This document shows, piece by piece, positions 333 to 37,457 of a stretch of 50,287 bases of DNA; the first letter of the stretch is position 1; the number at the start of each line of letters is the position of its first letter. The DNA is from a virus. A program made the translations under genes and the position numbers. The notes below the pieces were generated by a model. The model ran no database searches, had not been told where the DNA came from, and was given only the letters and a program-made list of their open reading frames with translations. The DNA lies in IMG/VR virus record IMGVR_UViG_3300024999_000149, positions 1 through 50,287 of that record. One strand, given 5' to 3'.

Positions 333-995
333 TTACCTCAGTTTGGCATAAGCGGTTAAAACTTCTTCGGTTAGTATCTCTCTGCAAAAGTCGGCAGACT
401 TCTTTAGGCTTTCTTTATAAGCATCAGCAGCAGCAACAGCAACAGCAGCATCAGCAGCAGCATAAGCATCAGCAGCAGCAACAGCAACAGCAGCATCAGC
501 AGCAGCATAAGCAGCAGCAGCAGCAACAGCAACAGCAGCATCAGCATAAGCAGCAGCAACAGCAACAGCAGCATCAGCATAAGCAGCAGCAGCAGCAACA
601 GCAGCATCAGCAGCAGCATAAGCAGCAACAGCAGCATCAGCAGCAGCATAAGCAGCAACAGCATAAGCAGCAGCAGCAGCATAAGCAGCAACAGCATAAG
701 CAGCAGCAGCAGCAGCATTTAACTCGTCTCTGCTTATCTCTCCGTTGCCATATTTCTCAGCAGCGTCAAGAGCCGCAATGCTTCGCTGATCTTTTATTAA
801 ATGCCTCACCTGATTAGCACATTTGAACTTTGCAAGTGTCAGTTTACGGTCATCAACTTTCAGTCTTTTGGCAAGCCACAGCATCCAATCACCACGTTCG
901 CAGTTCTGCCATGCTTCTTTGTAGTTTTTTTGCGTAGCTACCCATTCTCTTGCATCATTACAAGCATCAAGTTTTTTAAGTTTAGTTGTTTGCAT
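333..995 (-). CDS. Imm-5-like protein with a long Ala/Tyr/Asp/Val repeat tract
   Basis: This 220-residue protein has three parts. Residues 1-90 resemble the Imm-5 (putative immunity protein) family, with the motifs DAREWV and RGDWMLWLA. Residues 93-192 are a near-pure tract of Ala with regularly spaced Tyr, Asp and Val (units like AYAAADAAVA), likely one long helix. Residues 193-220 form a normal helical tail. The assignment of the N-terminus rests on those motifs only. Imm-5 proteins often sit in phages and toxin loci, but their biochemical role is not known to me. The tract is encoded by trinucleotide repeats and should change length easily. The start ATG is preceded by a leader motif shared with the next upstream gene. 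Confidence 0.75.
   Translation of the reverse strand: MQTTKLKKLDACNDAREWVATQKNYKEAWQNCERGDWMLWLAKRLKVDDRKLTLAKFKCANQVRHLIKDQRSIAALDAAEKYGNGEISRDELNAAAAAAYAVAAYAAAAAYAVAAYAAADAAVAAYAAADAAVAAAAAYADAAVAVAAAYADAAVAVAAAAAYAAADAAVAVAAADAYAAADAAVAVAAADAYKESLKKSADFCREILTEEVLTAYAKLR
421..718. repeat. Imperfect trinucleotide (CAG/CAT/AAG) tandem repeat tract
   Basis: About 300 bases consist of CAG, CAA, CAT and AAG triplets in an irregular higher-order pattern, for example the unit cagcagcataagcag recurring many times. The tract stays in frame with the minus-strand Ala-rich gene, where the triplets read as Ala, Val, Asp and Tyr. The opposite strand reads as a Gln/His-rich open frame, which I treat as a shadow. 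Length polymorphism by slippage is expected, and the assembled length may be inexact. Confidence 0.95.
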
Positions 996-22779: not shown

Positions 22780-22860
22780 AATAATTATGTTATTCGGACG
22801 TAAAGGTATGAATATCTTTTTATATTAATATCATTTTATCTGTTATTTTTTAAACACAAT

Positions 22861-22890
22861 AATAAAGCCCCGAATATTGGAGGCTTTATT
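22861..22890 (-). terminator. Strong hairpin terminator at the end of the array unit
   Basis: AATAAAGCC (22861-22869) and GGCTTTATT (22882-22890) are perfectly complementary over 9 bp, with two further C-G pairs inside and a 7-base loop. The stem is T-rich on its 3' side in both directions, so it may act bidirectionally. It closes the transcript of the HNH/Transposase_20 gene before the capsid operon and touches the first degenerate array block. Confidence 0.7.
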
Positions 22891-23077
22891 TTCACTAAAT
22901 GGCAATGGTTATCCTGATAATGGTGGTTCACTTCTGCTTTCTGGCTGTCTTCTCACTTATGATTCACTTTGGCGATATATGTATCTTCCGCTTCATGATT
23001 CACTTGCATATTTTGGGTATCTTAAGGCTAGTGGTTCATTTTCTCAGTTTGGTTGTATTATATGGAATGATTAAAAT
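22888..23077. repeat. Left array: 11 ten-base blocks at exact 18-bp spacing
   Basis: Ten-base blocks start at 22888, 22906, 22924 and every 18 bases to 23068, with no indel. They alternate between type A (TGRTTCAYTT: 22924, 22960, 22996, 23032) and type B (TGGNTRTCTT: 22906, 22942, 22978, 23014, 23050). The outermost two blocks are degenerate, and the last overlaps the stop codon of the adjacent gene. The intervening 8-mers all differ. The array has the same orientation as the right array. Confidence 0.9.
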
Positions 23078-24009
23078 ATCCAACCTCTTTCCTCCGGCCT
23101 GATAATTCCGGTATGACCTAACTTTTCTTCAACATAAAGTGCAGCCGTCGGCAAACCTTCAAACGTTCTCCACACGTACCAGAAGTCAGCAAGAAAATGC
23201 TTTATCAATTTGCGAATTGCAGCGCCGTGTCTGTGGCAAGGCTTAGCATCACACCAACGGCACTCAATAAGTTTGCCCTGCGTGTTCCTGGATTTAACAA
23301 TCTTATGAGAGGCTTCAAGTTTTGTCTTTTCAGCATCGTACACATCACGGTAAACGGCACGGGTTTTAATCATGCTGTCTGCCATTGTATAAAGCACTGT
23401 TCTCAATGTCTTATTGCCGCCTCCTGCTTCTCCTTTGGTGTACCTCTCATGTGAGGGCTTGTCAAGTCCAACGTAGCACCACAAAGATGATGCGTACTCA
23501 GCCTTTGTGATGTCAATGTAAACAAGTAGGTATGCAACGGTCATTGCACCTAATCCCTTAATCTGAAGTGCAGCCTGAATAATAGGCATATCAAGACCTT
23601 TGATATACTTCTCAATCCTCCGGCCCTGTTTGCCTAACTGACTGTCGGCCTCTTTCAACTGAAGTTTAAGCCACTTTTCAGTTGTTGCATCCATCTGATC
23701 CGTTCCACGTTTTGCGGCAAGCATACGGTTATTAATGGAGTTTACGAGTTTTCTGATCTGTTCCCGACCGTCAATCAGGACTTTCAGTTCAGTCATCTCA
23801 GGTGTGCGTTCACGGTAAATGAAGTGCCGTTTCATGTGTTCAACCGGATCAAGTACACGGCTGTTTTCGTCGGTATAAATACCTCCTTTAGCTTTTGGCA
23901 CAATACGGTCAGTATCATACATCCTCGGCATTTCTGCCAGTGCTACATCAGACAGTGCGCACTTGCCGTTCTGTCTCGTCTTGGTTCTTTCTTTTAATGC
24001 TTCTTTCAT
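23071..24009 (-). CDS. HNH-like plus Transposase_20 (IS110-type C-terminal) domain protein
   Basis: The start chosen is the ATG at 24009; a GTG two codons upstream is possible. In the 312-residue product, residues 15-62 resemble an HNH nuclease (CALSDVAL, DTDRIVPKAKGG, ENSRVLDPVEHMKRH), with Asp where the first His usually stands. Residues 70-140 are helical and coiled-coil. Residues 149-205 match the helix-hairpin-helix of Transposase_20 (IKGLGAMTVAYLL, then GNKTLRTVLY), the C-terminal domain of IS110 recombinases. The RuvC-like DEDD domain of IS110 is absent, and the Ser expected before GN is Ala/Gly (GEAGGGNK). A CxxC plus CHRH cluster (250-261) may bind zinc. Flanking 18-bp arrays suggest a dedicated DNA partner. 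Confidence 0.75.
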   Translation of the reverse strand: MKEALKERTKTRQNGKCALSDVALAEMPRMYDTDRIVPKAKGGIYTDENSRVLDPVEHMKRHFIYRERTPEMTELKVLIDGREQIRKLVNSINNRMLAAKRGTDQMDATTEKWLKLQLKEADSQLGKQGRRIEKYIKGLDMPIIQAALQIKGLGAMTVAYLLVYIDITKAEYASSLWCYVGLDKPSHERYTKGEAGGGNKTLRTVLYTMADSMIKTRAVYRDVYDAEKTKLEASHKIVKSRNTQGKLIECRWCDAKPCHRHGAAIRKLIKHFLADFWYVWRTFEGLPTAALYVEEKLGHTGIIRPEERGWIF

Positions 24010-24044
24010 TGTCACTCTTTTTAGTTAATAATCACTTAAAATAA

Positions 24045-24414
24045 TAGATCACTCTCGTGATATGGTTATCTTATGATTGTTGGTTCACTATTCGTTAATA
24101 GTTATCTTATCACTCATGGTTCATTTTCGTTTTCTGGTTGTCTTATTGTCGATAATTCATTTGTGACCATTGGATGTCTTTTGTACCGTGGCTCACTTCA
24201 ATTCATTGATTGATTTATTTCACATGATTCACTTCCGACTACTGATTGATTTGTAGGCTATGGTTCACTTAACATTAATGGTTGTCTTCATGCTAATGAT
24301 TCACTTTTGACACATGGGTATCTAATTTATAATGGTTCATTTTTCATTAATGAATGTCTTAAAACCGGTAATTCATTTACGCATCATGGATGTCTTTCGG
24401 CCTGTAATTCAAAG
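24045..24414. repeat. Right array: 21 ten-base blocks at exact 18-bp spacing
   Basis: Blocks start at 24045 (degenerate), 24063, 24081 and every 18 bases to 24405, without a single indel. Type A (TGRTTCAYTT) alternates with type B (TGGNTRTCTT), giving a 36-bp super-repeat. Two B blocks (24207, 24243) read TGATTGATTT. The 8-base intervals are variable, although TTCGTTAA, TTCATTAA and AACATTAA resemble each other. Both strands contain in-frame stops, so this is not coding sequence. This and the leader fill the 550-base gap upstream of the HNH/Transposase_20 gene. Confidence 0.92.
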
Positions 24415-24418
24415 AACA

Positions 24419-24474
24419 ACCCCGAAAAACTATGCGACGGGAGAGTGACCAGACCGAAGATAATTAAACGGGGT
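24419..24474 (-). ncRNA. Possible structured leader before the right array
   Basis: ACCCCG at 24419-24424 and CGGGGT at 24469-24474 can close a 56-base domain that includes internal G/C-rich segments (around CGACGGGAG and GACCAGACC) unlike the surrounding A+T-rich DNA. It lies between a weak promoter-like site (TTTG at 24538-24541 and TTAATTTG near 24513-24520 on the minus strand) and the array. IS110 elements encode a structured bridge RNA in the equivalent place; the comparison is inference. Confidence 0.4.
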
Positions 24475-24558
24475 GTTTATATTTTACCCTTAAATTGTCA
24501 CTTTTTGAATGTCAAATTAACACATTTATTTCAAATGCAAACTTTTGTGTGATTTTTT

Positions 24559-27471: not shown

Positions 27472-28074
27472 TTACCAATCATAAGACCCCGGCAAATGAC
27501 AAACAAAATACTCCGGCGTAGCAATCTTACCAAATTTTCTCGACTTCATCATCAAACTCTGATTAAAATAATGATCATGAGCATAACCCCGATGACCCCA
27601 ACGTGCGCCTAATGACCGCTTATGGCAGATATTTGACGTTCCATTCTGCCCTAACTTCCTTATGTCACAGTTACGCTCGACCCAATCACCACCTGAGTAA
27701 ACAATGTCATTGTAAAATACCCAATCATAGTCTTTGAGGTTATCCGCAATGATCTGCAAATGATTTTCTCCCCAATAGTCGTCAATGTCACAGTAAATAA
27801 TAAACTCGCCCGTTGCCTGTTCTATTCCCGTGTTACGTGGTGCACCGTCCCACATCGGGGCTTTCTTAATCAAAGTAGTTGTTATCCTTTCGTCGGTGAA
27901 TTGCTTCATTAAGTCCATTGTCAGTTGACAGCCGTCAGCCACGACTTGTAATTCAAGGTCTGTAAAGGTCTGATCCAATACTGACTGAACAGCACGAACA
28001 ATCTTTTCTTCACGACGGGAAGCCGCACCTGGATAAGGCGACAATAGCGACGGCATTATACAGCTGAACTTCAT
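27472..28074 (-). CDS. Glycosyltransferase family 2
   Basis: ATG at 28074 overlaps the upstream stop as ATGA. The 200-residue product has FSCIMPSLLSPYP, then LELQVVADGCQ, GAPRNTGIEQATGEFIIYCDIDDYW, where DIDD is the DXD-type motif, and a His-rich acceptor part (RWGHRGYAHDHYF). The resemblance to GT2 enzymes is clear. The acceptor is unknown. Confidence 0.85.
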   Translation of the reverse strand: MKFSCIMPSLLSPYPGAASRREEKIVRAVQSVLDQTFTDLELQVVADGCQLTMDLMKQFTDERITTTLIKKAPMWDGAPRNTGIEQATGEFIIYCDIDDYWGENHLQIIADNLKDYDWVFYNDIVYSGGDWVERNCDIRKLGQNGTSNICHKRSLGARWGHRGYAHDHYFNQSLMMKSRKFGKIATPEYFVCHLPGSYDW

Positions 28075-28262
28075 CTCGCTTGCTTGCATTTATGACAATA
28101 TGCCTCGGCATCATAATAGGTGAGTTCTCCCTTGCAGACAGGACATACATCTTGTTCTTTTATCTTATTCAATCTAAACTGTCTCTCTACTATTATCTCT
28201 ATTTGTCGCATTAACCTCTTGTATGAGTCCGGCCCCAAAATCATGTATGGTTCTCCTGTCAT
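28071..28262 (-). CDS. Small zinc-ribbon protein, 63 residues
   Basis: The C-terminal half holds CPVCKGELTYYDAEAYCHKC, a four-Cys zinc ribbon. The N-terminal half is helical and basic. It is the first gene after the TATCTTTG box at 28283-28290, so it may head the glycosyltransferase operon. Confidence 0.65.
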   Translation of the reverse strand: MTGEPYMILGPDSYKRLMRQIEIIVERQFRLNKIKEQDVCPVCKGELTYYDAEAYCHKCKQAR

Positions 28263-30309: not shown

Positions 30310-33300
30310 TTATTTATAATAATTGTTAAAAACTTCGACTAACTGATATTCGCAATTGTGTACAAGAATACCGTTTGCAAAGTATTCGTGCATCCCGTCT
30401 ACTGTAATATCATACACTACCGCGTTTCTTTCTTCTTGCTTTTCCTCCACAAGAACGGGAACAACATACAGATTTACTCCATCTATTGACCTCAAATATT
30501 CCGCCACATTCAACACAGGTGCGCTGTTCATTATATTTCCCCTCTGCCCTGTATCTTCGTGCTTGATATTTATTTTGGCATTTTCTGGTACACCATTCAG
30601 GGGTATTCCGAAGTATAGTTTTAAACTCCGTCCCACATCCTTTACATTTAGTCGCATATTCGTCCGTGAAAAGAACTTCCGCAGCGTGAATCTTATGCCA
30701 CTCCCTACCCTCCTCCGACTTATGCCATTCAGTTGCCTTTGGATGTGCTTTTTGCTGTAAGACATCTTTAAGCATCTGTTTGTAATCATCCGAACTTCTT
30801 TCGTAATGCCCCCCCAAATGCTCTTTATACGATAATAGAGCGATGTTCTCAATTCTGTTATCTCCGAAGTCACCATTAATATGGTGTATTGTAAGTCCTT
30901 TTGGAATCGGCCCATTAGCCTTCTCCCAAATGTATCTGTGAAGATAACGCTTTGTCCATTTGCCATTAATACGAACCCATCCCTTATAGTAGTTCCGGTC
31001 GCTTGCGGACTTACCATTGGGGTAACGGTGAAATCTGAAGTCGTCGTAGATAACTGTTTCTTTTTCCATGTTTCTTTTTCTGCAAAGATACATAATATAT
31101 TTGTACCTATCAGACCTTTTACCATAGAAAAATGATTGTTTGCAAATATTTTATGATCATCCGTACAAGCAATTTCCTTGTCTCCGATCACATATGTATT
31201 TACTTTCTTAATGCCATTATTATGAAAGGCTATAACAGGCATAAACCCCGCCCTTGTTAATACTTTATCACCGAACTTAATCTGATCAATACGTTTCTCT
31301 CCCTTGTCGGTTAGGATTAATGTTTCACCCACAAAACAAGTATCGGATAGGTGGCCGTATTTCTGATACTTATCGCCTGTTTCTTTGTCAGTGACGATAT
31401 GCTTGTCCTTTGCTCCGTTAATATCCTGTTTAACGTACATCATGTCAGCAATCATCAGTTTACAACTCTCATCAATCAGTATTCGTATTGGTAATTTCTC
31501 TTCAAAGATACGATTTATAAAGTCACGGCGTTTAGTAATTGAAGGGTTCTGTCGCATCATACGCGCCGAGCCGTTGACAAGAAACCTCCTTAGTTTATAT
31601 TCTATGATCTCATAATGATGTTTAAACTCCTTGTTCATCGTTGAACGTGCCTTGCCAGAAGCATCACCGTAATAGTAAATCGCTGACTTATGCGAAGCAT
31701 ACCGCATTAGTATATCTTCACAGACCTCTTCAGTTGAGTTACGGGGGTTCTCAAGAGCGATCTCGTCAATACAATACGACCACCAGATATCTTCTTTGCG
31801 CTCAAACTGCCAGATAGAACATGAGTTATAAGGAACAGAGTTCTGGTCAAACGAGATGTGCAAAGGCTTCGTTTTATCGTAGGTACACTTACCGACGTGC
31901 TTAAGGCGATCAAAAGATGAATAGAACTCGCCGCCTGCACTGACGAAAGGGCAAGCGTATATCAGAGCTTTGCCCCTTTGGTCGGAGTTATTGTCAAGAA
32001 CATTGCGGATATAATTTTCACCTACATTGTGGACGTTGTGCCAAGTCGACGAAATAACGACACACTTATTGTCGAACTCCTTCCAAAAGAATGTTTTGTC
32101 AGAGTAAATGCTATTATTAATCTCCTCAATGTAGGTTTCAAGTGAGAATAGCTCATTAATCCAGTCAACTTTTGCCGGGGATGTTACGATAAATAACGGG
32201 TTATATTGTTCTTCGGGCTTTCCCTCAGCCTTTAATTCACCGTTTACCATAAACATTCCCCGTTGCCTAATACGTGCAATAATGATTTCCTTTACATCCT
32301 CTTCACGTGTATCCCATGTTTCATCTAATACCCCCCACCCTGCCTCCTTTCCACTATGTGCGGAACTATTTTCTAAAGACCCAATAAATACTATTGCCCC
32401 ATTAATAAATGAAATAATGTTATAATAAGAATCAAAACTGTGACCCTCTGTGCTAAAATGAGATGGAGGTTTCTTTCCTACAACGTATTGACCAAGAGGA
32501 CTGCCTTCCTTATCGTACTCCACAATGCCGATGCTCTTCCAATACTCTCTTATACGGAACAGCGTTGATTGAGTCAGCTGCATTGCCGTATTTGCACCCA
32601 CAAAGCCCCGCACCTTCGGGAACTTTCTTATAAGTTGGTAGGTCTTTATTCCAAGCAAATAAGTTTTCCCGCTATTGTGAGCTATTATATTATCAGTCGT
32701 TACACAGTAGTTATGGTTATCAGCTACCTGTAAATCATAAACAATATCACAATCAAATGGTGTTACCTCAGTTATGTCCTCTATGGAAATTTCACGTGCA
32801 GCCAACTGCGGGTACAACAATCGTTGATTACCTCCTTTTTGAATCCCAATACTTCCCCTATTTTTTTGTATGTCATCCCCGCTTTGTGCATCTCCCTTGC
32901 ACGTATTACAATTGCATCCGTTAGTTTGTGTTTCGGATGATTTTCCCCCGCATTGCTCTCCAACCCCGTCGCAAACGCATGAGTCACATTCTCTGATCGT
33001 GTTGCCCATTCCAGGTTTTCTATCCTGTTGTCCGTCTTTATTCCGTTGATATGATTTATTGTTGGCTTGTTCAGCGGATTCGGAATAAACACCTTCGCAA
33101 TCTCTCTGTGCATTTTGATCGTATGATACTCTCCATTCCTCAGTATCATTGTCCTGAGATAGCCGCAAGCATCCAACGCAGGCTTCATTATCGCCGGAGA
33201 GTATCCCCCGTGCCACTTTCGGGTTAATAGCCTTCCCATATTGCTCACGTAATACCTGTCCTTTGTTTCCGGTATTACTCTCCAAACTTCGTTGGGCAAG

Positions 33301-33642
33301 CTCTCTAATGGCAACCCAAGTTCCTTTAAAGTAAAATCTGTGTTCATTTGTGCAGATAATTTTATGATTATTCACCACAAATATACTACACTTTTGTTTA
33401 ATATCACCCGTTTTATAGCAATATTTTTGCACAACTGATTTATACTCTGTTTTTTGTAAGGTTTCATTAAATGATAATACCCTATCCCCGCTTTCAATAT
33501 CTCTGATTTGTTTGTATCCCTTGTCAGTCGGAATAAGCGTTTCACCGTGAAAACATCCGACACCTCCGAGAAACAAGTTCATTGCTTTCGTGCTTTTAAG
33601 TATGGCACGTTGAGGCTCGGAGATTGTCTGTTCTATTGTCAT
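30310..33642 (-). CDS. terL: Terminase large subunit precursor containing two inteins
   Basis: The 1110-residue frame contains a 488-residue terminase split by two inteins. The Walker A motif is cut: GGVG (26-29) is followed by intein 1 (30-323) and then SGKT (324-327), which together rebuild GGVGSGKT. Walker B is GWGVLDE (435-441). The nuclease domain has FDQN, YYYGDASG and HLSD (764-767), with the third catalytic Asp two residues before intein 2 (769-1096). The C-extein resumes as CEYQLVEVF. After splicing both ATPase and nuclease motifs are intact. It follows TerS with a 4-base overlap. Confidence 0.95.
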   Translation of the reverse strand: MTIEQTISEPQRAILKSTKAMNLFLGGVGCFHGETLIPTDKGYKQIRDIESGDRVLSFNETLQKTEYKSVVQKYCYKTGDIKQKCSIFVVNNHKIICTNEHRFYFKGTWVAIRELAQRSLESNTGNKGQVLREQYGKAINPKVARGILSGDNEACVGCLRLSQDNDTEEWRVSYDQNAQRDCEGVYSESAEQANNKSYQRNKDGQQDRKPGMGNTIRECDSCVCDGVGEQCGGKSSETQTNGCNCNTCKGDAQSGDDIQKNRGSIGIQKGGNQRLLYPQLAAREISIEDITEVTPFDCDIVYDLQVADNHNYCVTTDNIIAHNSGKTYLLGIKTYQLIRKFPKVRGFVGANTAMQLTQSTLFRIREYWKSIGIVEYDKEGSPLGQYVVGKKPPSHFSTEGHSFDSYYNIISFINGAIVFIGSLENSSAHSGKEAGWGVLDETWDTREEDVKEIIIARIRQRGMFMVNGELKAEGKPEEQYNPLFIVTSPAKVDWINELFSLETYIEEINNSIYSDKTFFWKEFDNKCVVISSTWHNVHNVGENYIRNVLDNNSDQRGKALIYACPFVSAGGEFYSSFDRLKHVGKCTYDKTKPLHISFDQNSVPYNSCSIWQFERKEDIWWSYCIDEIALENPRNSTEEVCEDILMRYASHKSAIYYYGDASGKARSTMNKEFKHHYEIIEYKLRRFLVNGSARMMRQNPSITKRRDFINRIFEEKLPIRILIDESCKLMIADMMYVKQDINGAKDKHIVTDKETGDKYQKYGHLSDTCFVGETLILTDKGEKRIDQIKFGDKVLTRAGFMPVIAFHNNGIKKVNTYVIGDKEIACTDDHKIFANNHFSMVKGLIGTNILCIFAEKETWKKKQLSTTTSDFTVTPMVSPQATGTTIRDGFVLMANGQSVIFTDTFGRRLMGRFQKDLQYTILMVTSEITELRTSLYYRIKSIWGGITKEVRMITNRCLKMSYSKKHIQRQLNGISRRRVGSGIRFTLRKFFSRTNMRLNVKDVGRSLKLYFGIPLNGVPENAKINIKHEDTGQRGNIMNSAPVLNVAEYLRSIDGVNLYVVPVLVEEKQEERNAVVYDITVDGMHEYFANGILVHNCEYQLVEVFNNYYK
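30410..31069 (-). CDS. HNH homing endonuclease, out of frame inside intein 2
   Basis: The frame lies +2 relative to terL. I prefer the ATG at 31069 (preceded by AAAAAGAAAC) over the ATG at 31093. The 219-residue protein has HNH_3 motifs (LHRYIWEKANGPIP, IHHINGD at 61-67, DNRIEN at 70-75) and two zinc clusters (CKGC at 142-145 with Cys160/164, CVEC at 185-188 with Cys residues near 203-207). It ends 55 bases before the intein end, just reaching the first residues of the C-terminal splicing region. Function: cutting intein-less terL alleles to spread the intein, inferred from class. Confidence 0.85.
   Translation of the reverse strand: MEKETVIYDDFRFHRYPNGKSASDRNYYKGWVRINGKWTKRYLHRYIWEKANGPIPKGLTIHHINGDFGDNRIENIALLSYKEHLGGHYERSSDDYKQMLKDVLQQKAHPKATEWHKSEEGREWHKIHAAEVLFTDEYATKCKGCGTEFKTILRNTPEWCTRKCQNKYQARRYRAEGKYNEQRTCVECGGIFEVNRWSKSVCCSRSCGGKARRKKRGSV
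31083..31090 (-). promoter_or_regulatory. Internal -7 box (TATCTTTG) before the intein 2 HNH gene
   Basis: Perfect TAnnTTTG match on the minus strand, 13 bases upstream of the ATG at 31069, inside the intein. It could give a separate HNH transcript. No -33 TTTG is visible, so confidence is limited. Confidence 0.35.
32781..33347 (-). CDS. NUMOD4-HNH homing endonuclease, out of frame inside intein 1
   Basis: The frame is +1 relative to terL. The ATG at 33347 falls within the block B codons and the stop is 107 bases before the intein end. The 188-residue protein has NUMOD4 (20-45, EVWRVIPETKDRYYVSNMGR), an HNH_3 core (REIAKVF, INHING at 97-102, DNRIENLEW at 106-114) and a C-terminal HTH-like DNA-binding part (140-175, KLTDAIVIRAREM, YKKIGEVLGF). 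It is complete and should be active. The role would be intein homing into the P-loop codons. Confidence 0.88.
   Translation of the reverse strand: MNTDFTLKELGLPLESLPNEVWRVIPETKDRYYVSNMGRLLTRKWHGGYSPAIMKPALDACGYLRTMILRNGEYHTIKMHREIAKVFIPNPLNKPTINHINGIKTDNRIENLEWATRSENVTHAFATGLESNAGENHPKHKLTDAIVIRAREMHKAGMTYKKIGEVLGFKKEVINDCCTRSWLHVKFP
33378..33385 (-). promoter_or_regulatory. Internal -7 box (TATATTTG) before the intein 1 HNH gene
   Basis: Perfect TAnnTTTG match on the minus strand, 30 bases upstream of the HNH ATG at 33347, embedded in the intein N-terminal coding sequence (SIFVVN codons). The distance suits a short 5' leader. No -33 TTTG is seen. Confidence 0.4.
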
Positions 33643-34515: not shown

Positions 34516-34722
34516 TCATACCGTTGTACCCTCTTCGAAATCGTATGTCACAGAGCCGGTGGTGTAAACTATCTTACACTTTTTTACGATGTTTATTATA
34601 TCCTGCTCGACTTCTTTTAGTTTAAACCGTCGGCACTGCTTTTGTATGTGCCCAAGTGTTTCATCCATTTCCTCACAGTCGAGCAAAATGTTTGCCACGT
34701 GTATTAAGTCTTTTGATGTCAT
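34516..34722 (-). CDS. Hypothetical protein, 68 residues
   Basis: Unrecognised helical protein (DLIHVANILLDCEEMDETLGHIQKQ) with a short C-terminal strand pair. It overlaps the upstream radical SAM gene by 4 bases and ends the sugar and sigma-factor cluster. Confidence 0.55.
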   Translation of the reverse strand: MTSKDLIHVANILLDCEEMDETLGHIQKQCRRFKLKEVEQDIINIVKKCKIVYTTGSVTYDFEEGTTV

Positions 34723-35804
34723 ATTAACGTACTCCAGTATCTTAAAGTTTCAATTGATTGTTCAAATGTATAAAAAGGTGCGCCGCTTTGCACATAAATG
34801 TCATCATTCAATCCTGCGGCTTTTGCACGTCGGTAAATATCGGTCCCCGGAAGTACCCATGCAATATTCACACCGTAACGAGACATTTTTACCCTCCGTC
34901 TTATCCGTGCTGTTTTTCTTATATCCTCTATTGTGTCTCCGGGCAGTCCGATAATAAACTGGCTCATTGTAGCGATCCCATGTCGTTCGGCTGTTTCTAT
35001 TCCTTTGATCATTCGCTCGACGGTTGTATTTTTGCCGCAGCGATCCAAACTGTCCTGAGAGAAACTCTCTATGCCTAACCACAGAGTATGGCAACCTGAC
35101 CGCTTTAAGGCTGCACAAAGTTCATCGTCGAGGTTCTCGGCACGTGAAGCGCACTGCCATGATCCCTGAATGTTATTACATATTTCAATAGCACGTTTAC
35201 GGTTTGCTGTAAAGTTGTCATCTTCAAACATCCAGGTCTTATACCCAAAATGATTAATTTCTTCAATAACACTTTCAGATGAACGGGCTTTCCACTTATT
35301 GCCCCAGAATGAAGTAGAGCCGCAAAAGTTGCATTTAAAAGGACAGCCACGTGAAGAAATGACAACGTTATCGGTATAGTGTAGCCCCGTGTAATCAGGG
35401 AACGGAATATCATTTACTGTCTTATAGTGTTGTGTTGATGTTTTTTTTATCTGCTCTCTATCTCCATTTAAAATATCAATCATTGCGTTTTCGCCTTCAC
35501 CAATAACGACCTGATCATACCCTATTGCGATCATTTGTTCAGGTAAGGCCGAAGGATGATGACCGCCACAGACTAAATGCGTATTCTTAAAATGTTCTCT
35601 TATCCTCTGAGCATACTGAACCGAAAAGGAATGAAAGGTCACTCCGACAATATCGTAATTATCAGGCTCGCACATCGCAGCATCAAGGTCGAGGGATTTT
35701 ACTTCAACGCCCTGTGCCAAGATCGTCGCCTGAAGATAACCGATGCTCGGCGGCGGAAATAACTCTCCCGGCCACGGATTGACCAACAATACTCGTAACG
35801 ACAT
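34719..35804 (-). CDS. B12-binding-domain radical SAM protein
   Basis: Residues 1-110 are a Rossmann-like cobalamin-binding domain of the class B radical SAM enzymes (RVLLVNPWPGELFPPPSIGYL, then GGHHPSALPE). Residues 150-330 are the radical SAM core with CxxxCxxC at Cys154, Cys158 and Cys161 (CPFKCNFC). The start is fixed by the first strand, so the 101-base overlap with the epimerase gene is real. Such enzymes methylate or rearrange lipids, sugars or peptides. Neighbouring sugar genes suggest a glycan substrate, but this is inference. At 361 residues it is a little short for the family. Confidence 0.85.
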   Translation of the reverse strand: MSLRVLLVNPWPGELFPPPSIGYLQATILAQGVEVKSLDLDAAMCEPDNYDIVGVTFHSFSVQYAQRIREHFKNTHLVCGGHHPSALPEQMIAIGYDQVVIGEGENAMIDILNGDREQIKKTSTQHYKTVNDIPFPDYTGLHYTDNVVISSRGCPFKCNFCGSTSFWGNKWKARSSESVIEEINHFGYKTWMFEDDNFTANRKRAIEICNNIQGSWQCASRAENLDDELCAALKRSGCHTLWLGIESFSQDSLDRCGKNTTVERMIKGIETAERHGIATMSQFIIGLPGDTIEDIRKTARIRRRVKMSRYGVNIAWVLPGTDIYRRAKAAGLNDDIYVQSGAPFYTFEQSIETLRYWSTLI

Positions 35805-36669
35805 TTATCACTCGGTTTATCCCTTCGGTAACTGATACTTCGGGAATTATTTTTAATATGTTTGCTTGCTTTTCAAGATTAGGATACTTCGTCAGTGTCA
35901 TCTTTGACGGCAAGTCTGAAATCTTTATCAGATCCCTTGACCTACCCATCCTTAAACAGACAATATCGGCAAGCTCTTCGACTGAGATAACATTAGGATG
36001 ACCGATGTTTATTATCTCGTAGTTTTCAACATACATAACACGCTCTAAAGCACGGACAGCATCCGATATATGCATCCATGAACGCATTGCTCCACGGTGA
36101 ACCTCTATCTCACGGCCTTTAGCAAGTGACCAAACAAAGCGTATCATTGCCGACCTATGGTTGCCTATATCCTCATTCTCATCATAAAACATAAACGGGC
36201 GCACGGTCACGGCCCTCAATCCTTCATTCAAAGAATATTCGACAAGTTTCTCACCGAGGTATTTCGTCAGACCATAAAAGTTATTCGGTACACAACGTTC
36301 ACCTTCTGAAAGCATCCCTCCGGTGTTACCATAAACCTCTGAGGTAGAAAAGTAAATGAGTTTTGCATTATATTGTTTGCATAACTGAATGACATTTTCA
36401 GTCCCGGTTAAATTCACTTCGGTAGTATAAGACGGTGCAGTCTCACACGTGACCCGTGAAACCATCGCTGCCATATGATAAACTACTTCAGGCCTGAACT
36501 CATTGAAGGCCTTTTGAAGCTCATAAGCGTTGCAAACATCTCCGGTTAAATAATCTTCACCGCACCCCTGACGAATATCAAACCGAAATACTTCATGCCC
36601 CATTGACTTAAAATATGGTACAAGCCTTCGACCTATATTACCCTCTGATCCGGTTACGAGTATCTTCAT
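35704..36669 (-). CDS. NAD-dependent sugar epimerase/dehydratase (extended SDR)
   Basis: The 321-residue protein opens with the NAD-binding motif KILVTGSEGNIGRRL (GxxGxxG, residues 7-13) and has FSTSEVYGNTG with the Ser and the catalytic Tyr-Lys pair in NFYGLTKYLGEK. VRPFMFYDEN and MRSWMHISDAVRALE are typical of nucleotide-sugar epimerases. The last 30 residues look atypical and lie in the region overlapping the radical SAM start. It likely supplies a modified sugar to the adjacent glycosyltransferase. Confidence 0.88.
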   Translation of the reverse strand: MKILVTGSEGNIGRRLVPYFKSMGHEVFRFDIRQGCGEDYLTGDVCNAYELQKAFNEFRPEVVYHMAAMVSRVTCETAPSYTTEVNLTGTENVIQLCKQYNAKLIYFSTSEVYGNTGGMLSEGERCVPNNFYGLTKYLGEKLVEYSLNEGLRAVTVRPFMFYDENEDIGNHRSAMIRFVWSLAKGREIEVHRGAMRSWMHISDAVRALERVMYVENYEIINIGHPNVISVEELADIVCLRMGRSRDLIKISDLPSKMTLTKYPNLEKQANILKIIPEVSVTEGINRVINVVTSIVGQSVAGRVISAAEHRLSSGDDLGTGR

Positions 36670-37457
36670 AGATCCAGTGTGTTTGTATGAACAGCCCTAA
36701 ATCCTTTCTCTGTCTGTTCAATCTTTAAATAAAGCGAAAGTCCCATATCCCCGGCATCAGTCATGTTAATATGTGAGTGATCATGCCACTGGTGAACGAC
36801 AAAAGGCTCGTAAGGGATCGTGACCTCAAGTCCCAGACGACGCACACGCAGAATGAGATCATTGTCCCCGTAAGCAATGTAATGAGCAAAGCGTTCATCG
36901 TACCCGTTCAGTTTACGAAGGTTCTCTGTGGTGACCGCAGCGCAAAAGTCATACGCCCTCGGTATCAGTGTCGGGTGATTGTACCATCCTATTTCCTGGT
37001 TCGCTGGATTATTTGGAAAGTCATACTCTATAGGTAAAAGCGCCATAATAACCCGGTCGCTTATTCCTGTAAAAGTAGTGGCCATGTCAATAGCTAATGC
37101 AGAGAAGGGAATATAATTACTCTCGGTCACGTTCTCTGCGGCATACTTTATAACATCTCCGTAGTGATAACATTCAGCGTTCTGAAGTATTATAATATCA
37201 GGATTTAAAGGCAGTGCAGTATGTATTCCGAGATTGTAAGCTATCACGGGATTAGTCCACCACTTCTCTTCGCCAACTCTGTAAGTATGAATACGTGGCC
37301 CGTATTTTGAGAAGTCCACAACGTCATCACTTTTGTCGTCAACGATAACGATCTCAAAATTCTTATGCTTTGTTTTATAAATTGACCTCAGTGTTCTCTC
37401 AAGTTGAAAGAGCCTGTTAAAATACGTCATAACGACGACAACTTTCAATTCTGCCAT
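36666..37457 (-). CDS. Glycosyltransferase family 2
   Basis: The 263-residue protein has VVVVMTYFNRLFQLERTLRSI, then IVIVDDKSDD (nucleotide binding), LQNAECYHYGDV in the place of the DXD region, and GYDERFAHYIAYGDNDLILR, the galactosyltransferase-type ED/ND motif near the catalytic base. VHQWHDH supplies a late metal-binding His. It overlaps the epimerase by 4 bases, so the two act together. Confidence 0.87.
   Translation of the reverse strand: MAELKVVVVMTYFNRLFQLERTLRSIYKTKHKNFEIVIVDDKSDDVVDFSKYGPRIHTYRVGEEKWWTNPVIAYNLGIHTALPLNPDIIILQNAECYHYGDVIKYAAENVTESNYIPFSALAIDMATTFTGISDRVIMALLPIEYDFPNNPANQEIGWYNHPTLIPRAYDFCAAVTTENLRKLNGYDERFAHYIAYGDNDLILRVRRLGLEVTIPYEPFVVHQWHDHSHINMTDAGDMGLSLYLKIEQTEKGFRAVHTNTLDL

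What the first reader, a model, noticed from the sequence alone, without database searches (positions are those of the whole stretch)
22888..24414. Two arrays of 10-bp blocks at exact 18-bp spacing flank one gene
Seen directly: 21 blocks on the right (24045-24414) and 11 on the left (22888-23077) keep a perfect 18-bp step with no indel. Types A (TGRTTCAYTT) and B (TGGNTRTCTT) alternate, so the real unit is 36 bp with two variable 8-mers. Conservation is at DNA level: in the plus-strand frame the Ser codon of all 14 good A blocks is TCA, while Gly/Asp/Asn vary, and two B blocks give in-frame stops. Both arrays have the same orientation. This is neither a CRISPR (spacers are 8 bp), nor iterons (the repeats alternate), nor a known IS end. 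I know of no described system with this layout. Inference: a ladder of binding sites, or a guide-like or recombination array, for the adjacent protein.
Basis: partly seen in the sequence, partly recalled or inferred. Interest (0 to 1): 0.92.

Follow-up and report, generated by a model that had tools for sequence, protein, structure and literature searches.

The report
A phage TIGR-TasH RNA-guided nuclease locus
The two "ladders" are guide-RNA arrays of the recently described TIGR-Tas family and the gene between them is its RNA-guided DNA-cutting enzyme (TasH), so this is a new example, in an uncultivated phage, of a system published in 2025 rather than an unknown kind.

Summary
The reading "no described system" is wrong. 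The gene (23071-24015, minus strand) is TasH: phmmer E 6e-103 over 299 residues to TasH in the PDB, and 52% identity to TasH of Salicola phage CGphi29, shown experimentally to be an RNA-guided nuclease. The arrays are TIGR arrays on the minus strand, like the gene: edge AARTGAAYCA, 8-nt spacer A, loop AAGAYANCCA, 8-nt spacer B, 36-nt period. They encode 10 guides upstream and 5 downstream, with truncated edge repeats at their ends and a predicted terminator after the second. Of 29 TasH loci in viral contigs, 28 carry such an array on the coding strand (the other is cut off at its contig end). Edge positions 4/7 covary C-G with U-A. A syntenic sibling phage lacks the cassette and has four tRNA genes there. 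I looked for natural targets, which the founding paper could not identify: across 332 guides and 1.1 Mb there was no excess over mismatched spacer pairs; two 15/16 matches in the cassette-less sibling are only suggestive. Verdict: a real, ordinary new member of a known kind; its targets remain open.

The parts
24045..24414 (-). TIGR array 1, upstream of tasH: 10 units (truncated edge, then spacer A 8 nt - loop 10 nt - spacer B 8 nt - edge 10 nt, ten times; last edge truncated)
   Evidence: edge AARTGAAYCA, loop AAGAYANCCA; first edge 5'-truncated (CTTTGAATTA), last 3'-truncated (GAGTGATCTA)
23071..24015 (-). tasH: 314-aa TasH effector, N-terminal HNH-type domain plus Nop/IS110-like RNA-binding domain
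   Evidence: PDB TasH 21kl/9vzx etc., E 6.4e-103; PF02371 Transposase_20 above cut-off; CGphi29 TasH 51.6%
22888..23077 (-). TIGR array 2, downstream of tasH: 5 units; its first truncated edge overlaps the tasH stop codon
22861..22890 (-). predicted intrinsic terminator directly after the last truncated edge repeat of array 2
   Evidence: 11-pair stem AATAAAGCCTCC/GGGGCTTTATT; the only terminator-like site in the region, but the count is not above the shuffle expectation (mean 1.5)
24416..24553 (-). region upstream of array 1, presumably carrying the promoter; right edge of the cassette that the sibling phage lacks
   Evidence: homology to G006 resumes at 24554; promoter-like site 24509-24481, count not above shuffle expectation

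Best explanation
A TIGR-TasH system carried by a tailed phage. [quoted passage not shown] A TasH dimer binds one tigRNA; spacer A pairs with one strand and spacer B with the other strand of an approximately 16-bp DNA target, and the HNH domains nick both strands. In the phage this most likely serves conflict with other mobile DNA (other phages or plasmids in the same host). Shown here: protein identity, array anatomy, co-occurrence, spacer difference between siblings, repeat covariation. Taken from published experiments on homologues (PMC12045711): processing, dual-strand pairing, cleavage; the dimer is from the TasR structure. Inferred: activity in this phage and what it attacks.
For: phmmer to solved TasH, E 6.4e-103 over residues 14-312; 51.6% identity to CGphi29 TasH, whose tigRNA- and HNH-dependent cleavage was reported (PMC12045711) and whose array, read from the record, has the same 10+8+10+8 layout. 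The alignment of four TasH shows D34, N51, H60, H64 and the GGGNKTLRT and KHFLAD motifs invariant. The published array rules (5'-truncated edge at the start, 3'-truncated edge and terminator at the end, arrays up- and/or downstream) are met. 28 of 29 TasH loci in IMG/VR have arrays on the coding strand; the 29th is cut off at the contig end. Edge positions 4/7: CG 153, TA 98, other combinations 14 of 265, as expected for the covarying edge pair described for tigRNAs.
Against: No RNA or cleavage data for this phage. PADLOC-DB 2023 has no model and Rfam no match. No convincing natural target: no excess over mismatched spacer pairs for 332 guides. In the window protein the usual HNH histidine position reads Asp-Arg (DTDRI); CGphi29 TasH has the same motif (DVDRI) and is reported active.
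Confidence: 0.96

Rival explanations
1. The guides target sibling phages that lack the cassette (superinfection exclusion between related phages): same machinery, specific role.
For: In the syntenic sibling G006 (51.9 kb, no TasH) two guides match 15 of 16 bases in the geometry deduced from the published cut pattern: guide 3 at G006 882 (gap 0, in the interval that replaces the cassette) and guide 9 at G006 16806 (gap 2); expected from mismatched pairs 0.21. The own genome has no match within 1 mismatch.
Against: No exact match. Across all owners there is no clear excess (39 one-mismatch hits in gaps 0-2 against about 34 expected). The guide 3 site is AT-rich; both were picked out after the fact.
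Confidence: 0.2
2. The guides target the tasH genes of rival TasH phages.
For: 16 sites within 2 mismatches against 4.8 expected at gap 0; G033 guide 6 spells the conserved ADYWFV motif with only synonymous differences from several tasH genes.
Against: Counted per guide instead of per site, the excess vanishes: 2 guides with no non-synonymous mismatch against 1.5 expected; one conserved motif was counted several times.
Confidence: 0.05
3. DNA-level ladder of protein binding sites (operator or centromere-like array) rather than guide RNAs.
For: Regular 18-bp spacing and fixed orientation.
Against: Protein and array belong to a family with demonstrated RNA processing (PMC12045711). Edge positions 4/7 covary as an RNA pair would. 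Spacers vary freely (306 of 312 spacer A distinct).
Confidence: 0.02
4. IS110-type insertion element with a bridge RNA.
For: PF02371 (IS116/IS110/IS902) is the only Pfam match above cut-off.
Against: The whole protein including its N-terminal part aligns to TasH over 299 residues. No N-terminal IS110 domain match in Pfam, one copy in the genome, and arrays in place of a single bridge RNA.
Confidence: 0.01

Closest known systems
SpTIGR-TasH of Salicola phage CGphi29 (Faure et al. 2025, PMC12045711)
   Same: TasH 52% identical over nearly full length; 10-nt edge and loop, 8-nt spacers, 36-nt unit; array on the coding strand; tasH within the head/structural gene region
   Different: CGphi29 has a downstream array of 11 units with edge AAGCGAGYCA; the window has an upstream array (10) and a downstream array (5) with edge AARTGAAYCA; spacers differ
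TIGR-TasR (Thermoproteota TaTIGR)
   Same: Nop domain, dual-spacer arrays, 36-nt tigRNA
   Different: RuvC instead of HNH, 9-nt spacers, different box motifs (UG/CCA)
IS110 transposases and box C/D snoRNP Nop proteins
   Same: Related RNA-binding domain, paired guides
   Different: Different catalytic domain or partner and different RNA organisation
CRISPR arrays
   Same: Repeats with variable guide segments next to an effector gene
   Different: Here two alternating 10-nt repeats and 8-nt split spacers, and a single Nop-domain effector

Membership tests
TIGR-TasH | Effector with Nop (IS110-like) domain and N-terminal HNH domain, homologous to TasH | tested here: met
   (HNH assigned by homology to TasH; Pfam gave no separate HNH match)
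TIGR-TasH | Array of two alternating 8-12-nt repeats separated by ~8-9-nt spacers, 36-nt unit | tested here: met
TIGR-TasH | Array begins with 5'-truncated edge, ends with 3'-truncated edge plus terminator | tested here: met
   (predicted terminator after array 2; array 1 runs on towards tasH without one)
TIGR-TasH | Edge repeat base pair kept by covariation | tested here: met
   CG 153, TA 98, other 14 of 265 edges across TasH loci
TIGR-TasH | Processing to 36-nt tigRNA bound by the protein | not testable with these tools
   reported for the CGphi29 homologue (PMC12045711)
TIGR-TasH | Cleavage of DNA paired with spacers A and B on opposite strands | not testable with these tools
   reported for the CGphi29 homologue (PMC12045711)
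TIGR-TasH | Natural targets in genomes (not part of the definition; unknown for the family) | tested here: inconclusive
CRISPR | Single repeat type of about 25-36 nt with spacers of similar size | tested here: not met
IS110 element | N-terminal DEDD catalytic domain | tested here: not met
   no such Pfam match; N-terminal part aligns to TasH
IS110 element | Single bridge RNA instead of an array | tested here: not met
   (two arrays of 10 and 5 units)

The most novel reading that the evidence does not exclude
The arrays are inter-phage weapons aimed at sibling phages that lack the cassette, including a site within the interval that replaces it, so TIGR-TasH would act as a phage exclusion or cassette-spreading device. 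As far as the held literature shows, this would be the first natural target identified for a TIGR system.
Probability: 0.15. Interest if true: 0.75.

Novelty: new member of a known kind. Interest (0 to 1): 0.3.

Why it matters
It adds a well-preserved member, and a set of TasH phage loci around it, to a family whose natural targets and biological role are open questions. The TIGR-bearing window phage next to a syntenic sibling without TIGR is a useful pair for asking what the guides attack. By itself it does not change what is known.

Tried and rejected
Target searches. Own genome: nothing within 1 mismatch. Nine related contigs and the sibling G006: two 15/16 matches. 332 guides against 1.1 Mb of TasH phages and relatives, with mismatched A/B pairs as control: no excess. 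tasH genes as targets: an excess by site vanished when counted by guide. A genome-contig scan with the TasH profile found no bacterial or archaeal relative, so the host is not identified. The reversed geometry rc(SA)-SB was tested and shows no excess either. Known RNA families: none. DNA binding ladder, CRISPR and IS110 readings rejected as stated.

Full report
Observation. In 300 dinucleotide shuffles no alternating chain is longer than 2; the sequence has 9 at the same tolerance. Read on the minus strand, which is the coding strand of the gene between them, the types are AARTGAAYCA and AAGAYANCCA.

The gene. 23071-24015 (minus) encodes 314 aa. Its only Pfam match above cut-off is the IS110-type domain PF02371. 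Against the PDB it matches entries named TasH with E 6.4e-103 over 299 residues and, far more weakly, a second protein with an IS110 C-terminal domain. The closest cultured-phage protein is SLPG_00018 of Salicola phage CGphi29 (51.6%); the TIGR locus of that phage is the SpTIGR of Faure et al. 2025 (PMC12045711). Four aligned TasH keep D34, N51, H60 and H64 and the GGGNKTLRT, NTQG and KHFLAD motifs.

The arrays. In that paper a TIGR array is edge - spacer A - loop - spacer B, begins and ends with truncated edge repeats, and is followed by a terminator; SpTIGR has 16 nt of spacer in all. The window fits: truncated first edge, 10 units, truncated last edge (array 1, upstream); truncated first edge overlapping the tasH stop codon, 5 units, truncated last edge merging into an 11-pair predicted terminator stem at 22890-22861 (array 2).

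Relatives. A TasH profile found 29 loci in IMG/VR and none in GTDB genome contigs. Arrays of 36-nt units are present in 28, on the coding strand and close to tasH; the remaining locus is cut off at the contig end. Two contigs are the same phage as the window. The 79%-identical sibling (L049/L050) shares no spacer pair with the window while its repeats are almost the same. Over 265 internal edges, positions 4 and 7 are C/G in 153, T/A in 98 and otherwise in 14, the covariation expected for the edge pair of a tigRNA.

Context. The window phage is a tailed phage (portal, terminase, tape measure). Sibling G006 (51.9 kb) is syntenic and has no TasH match. Between the homologous blocks that end at window 22779 and resume at 24554 it has four tRNA genes instead. 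The cassette is thus a discrete accessory module.

Targets. From the published 8-nt 3' overhangs I deduced that a target reads spacer B followed by the reverse complement of spacer A. With mismatched spacer pairs as control I found no general excess. The two 15/16 matches in G006 are suggestive only. An apparent excess in tasH genes disappeared when counted per guide. Natural targets remain unknown, as in the original paper.

Conclusion. Known kind, new member. Mechanism by homology: RNA-guided cleavage of both DNA strands by TasH using split guides; the role is most likely conflict between mobile elements, and the target is unresolved.

Noticed in passing
window 30310-33642 (-): Terminase large subunit gene appears interrupted by one or two inteins: Pfam Intein_splicing at residues 40-323, a Hint_2 match at 768-801, and an intein-like C-terminal end (HEYFANGILVHNC).
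   Followed up: partly
G006 869-1559 (L031) versus window 22780-24553: A four-tRNA cluster (Tyr, Ser, Leu, Leu) in the sibling phage occupies the place of the TIGR cassette: an accessory-gene swap site.
   Followed up: partly
arrays in L061, L067, L074, L059, L063, L072: Several TasH arrays hold duplicate or near-duplicate spacers or units (e.g. L061 gcaaaaat with gaatcgaa/ggatcgaa; L067 caaaggtt/acccgcgc twice), suggesting growth by unit duplication or guides against variants of one target.
   Followed up: no
   Followed up: partly
window 417-717: Degenerate tandem CAG-type repeat (periods 33-45) inside an open reading frame.
   Followed up: no
window 34719-35804 (-), 27472-28089 (-), 36666-37457 (-): Radical SAM/B12-binding protein and two glycosyltransferase family 2 proteins in the phage genome.
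   Followed up: no
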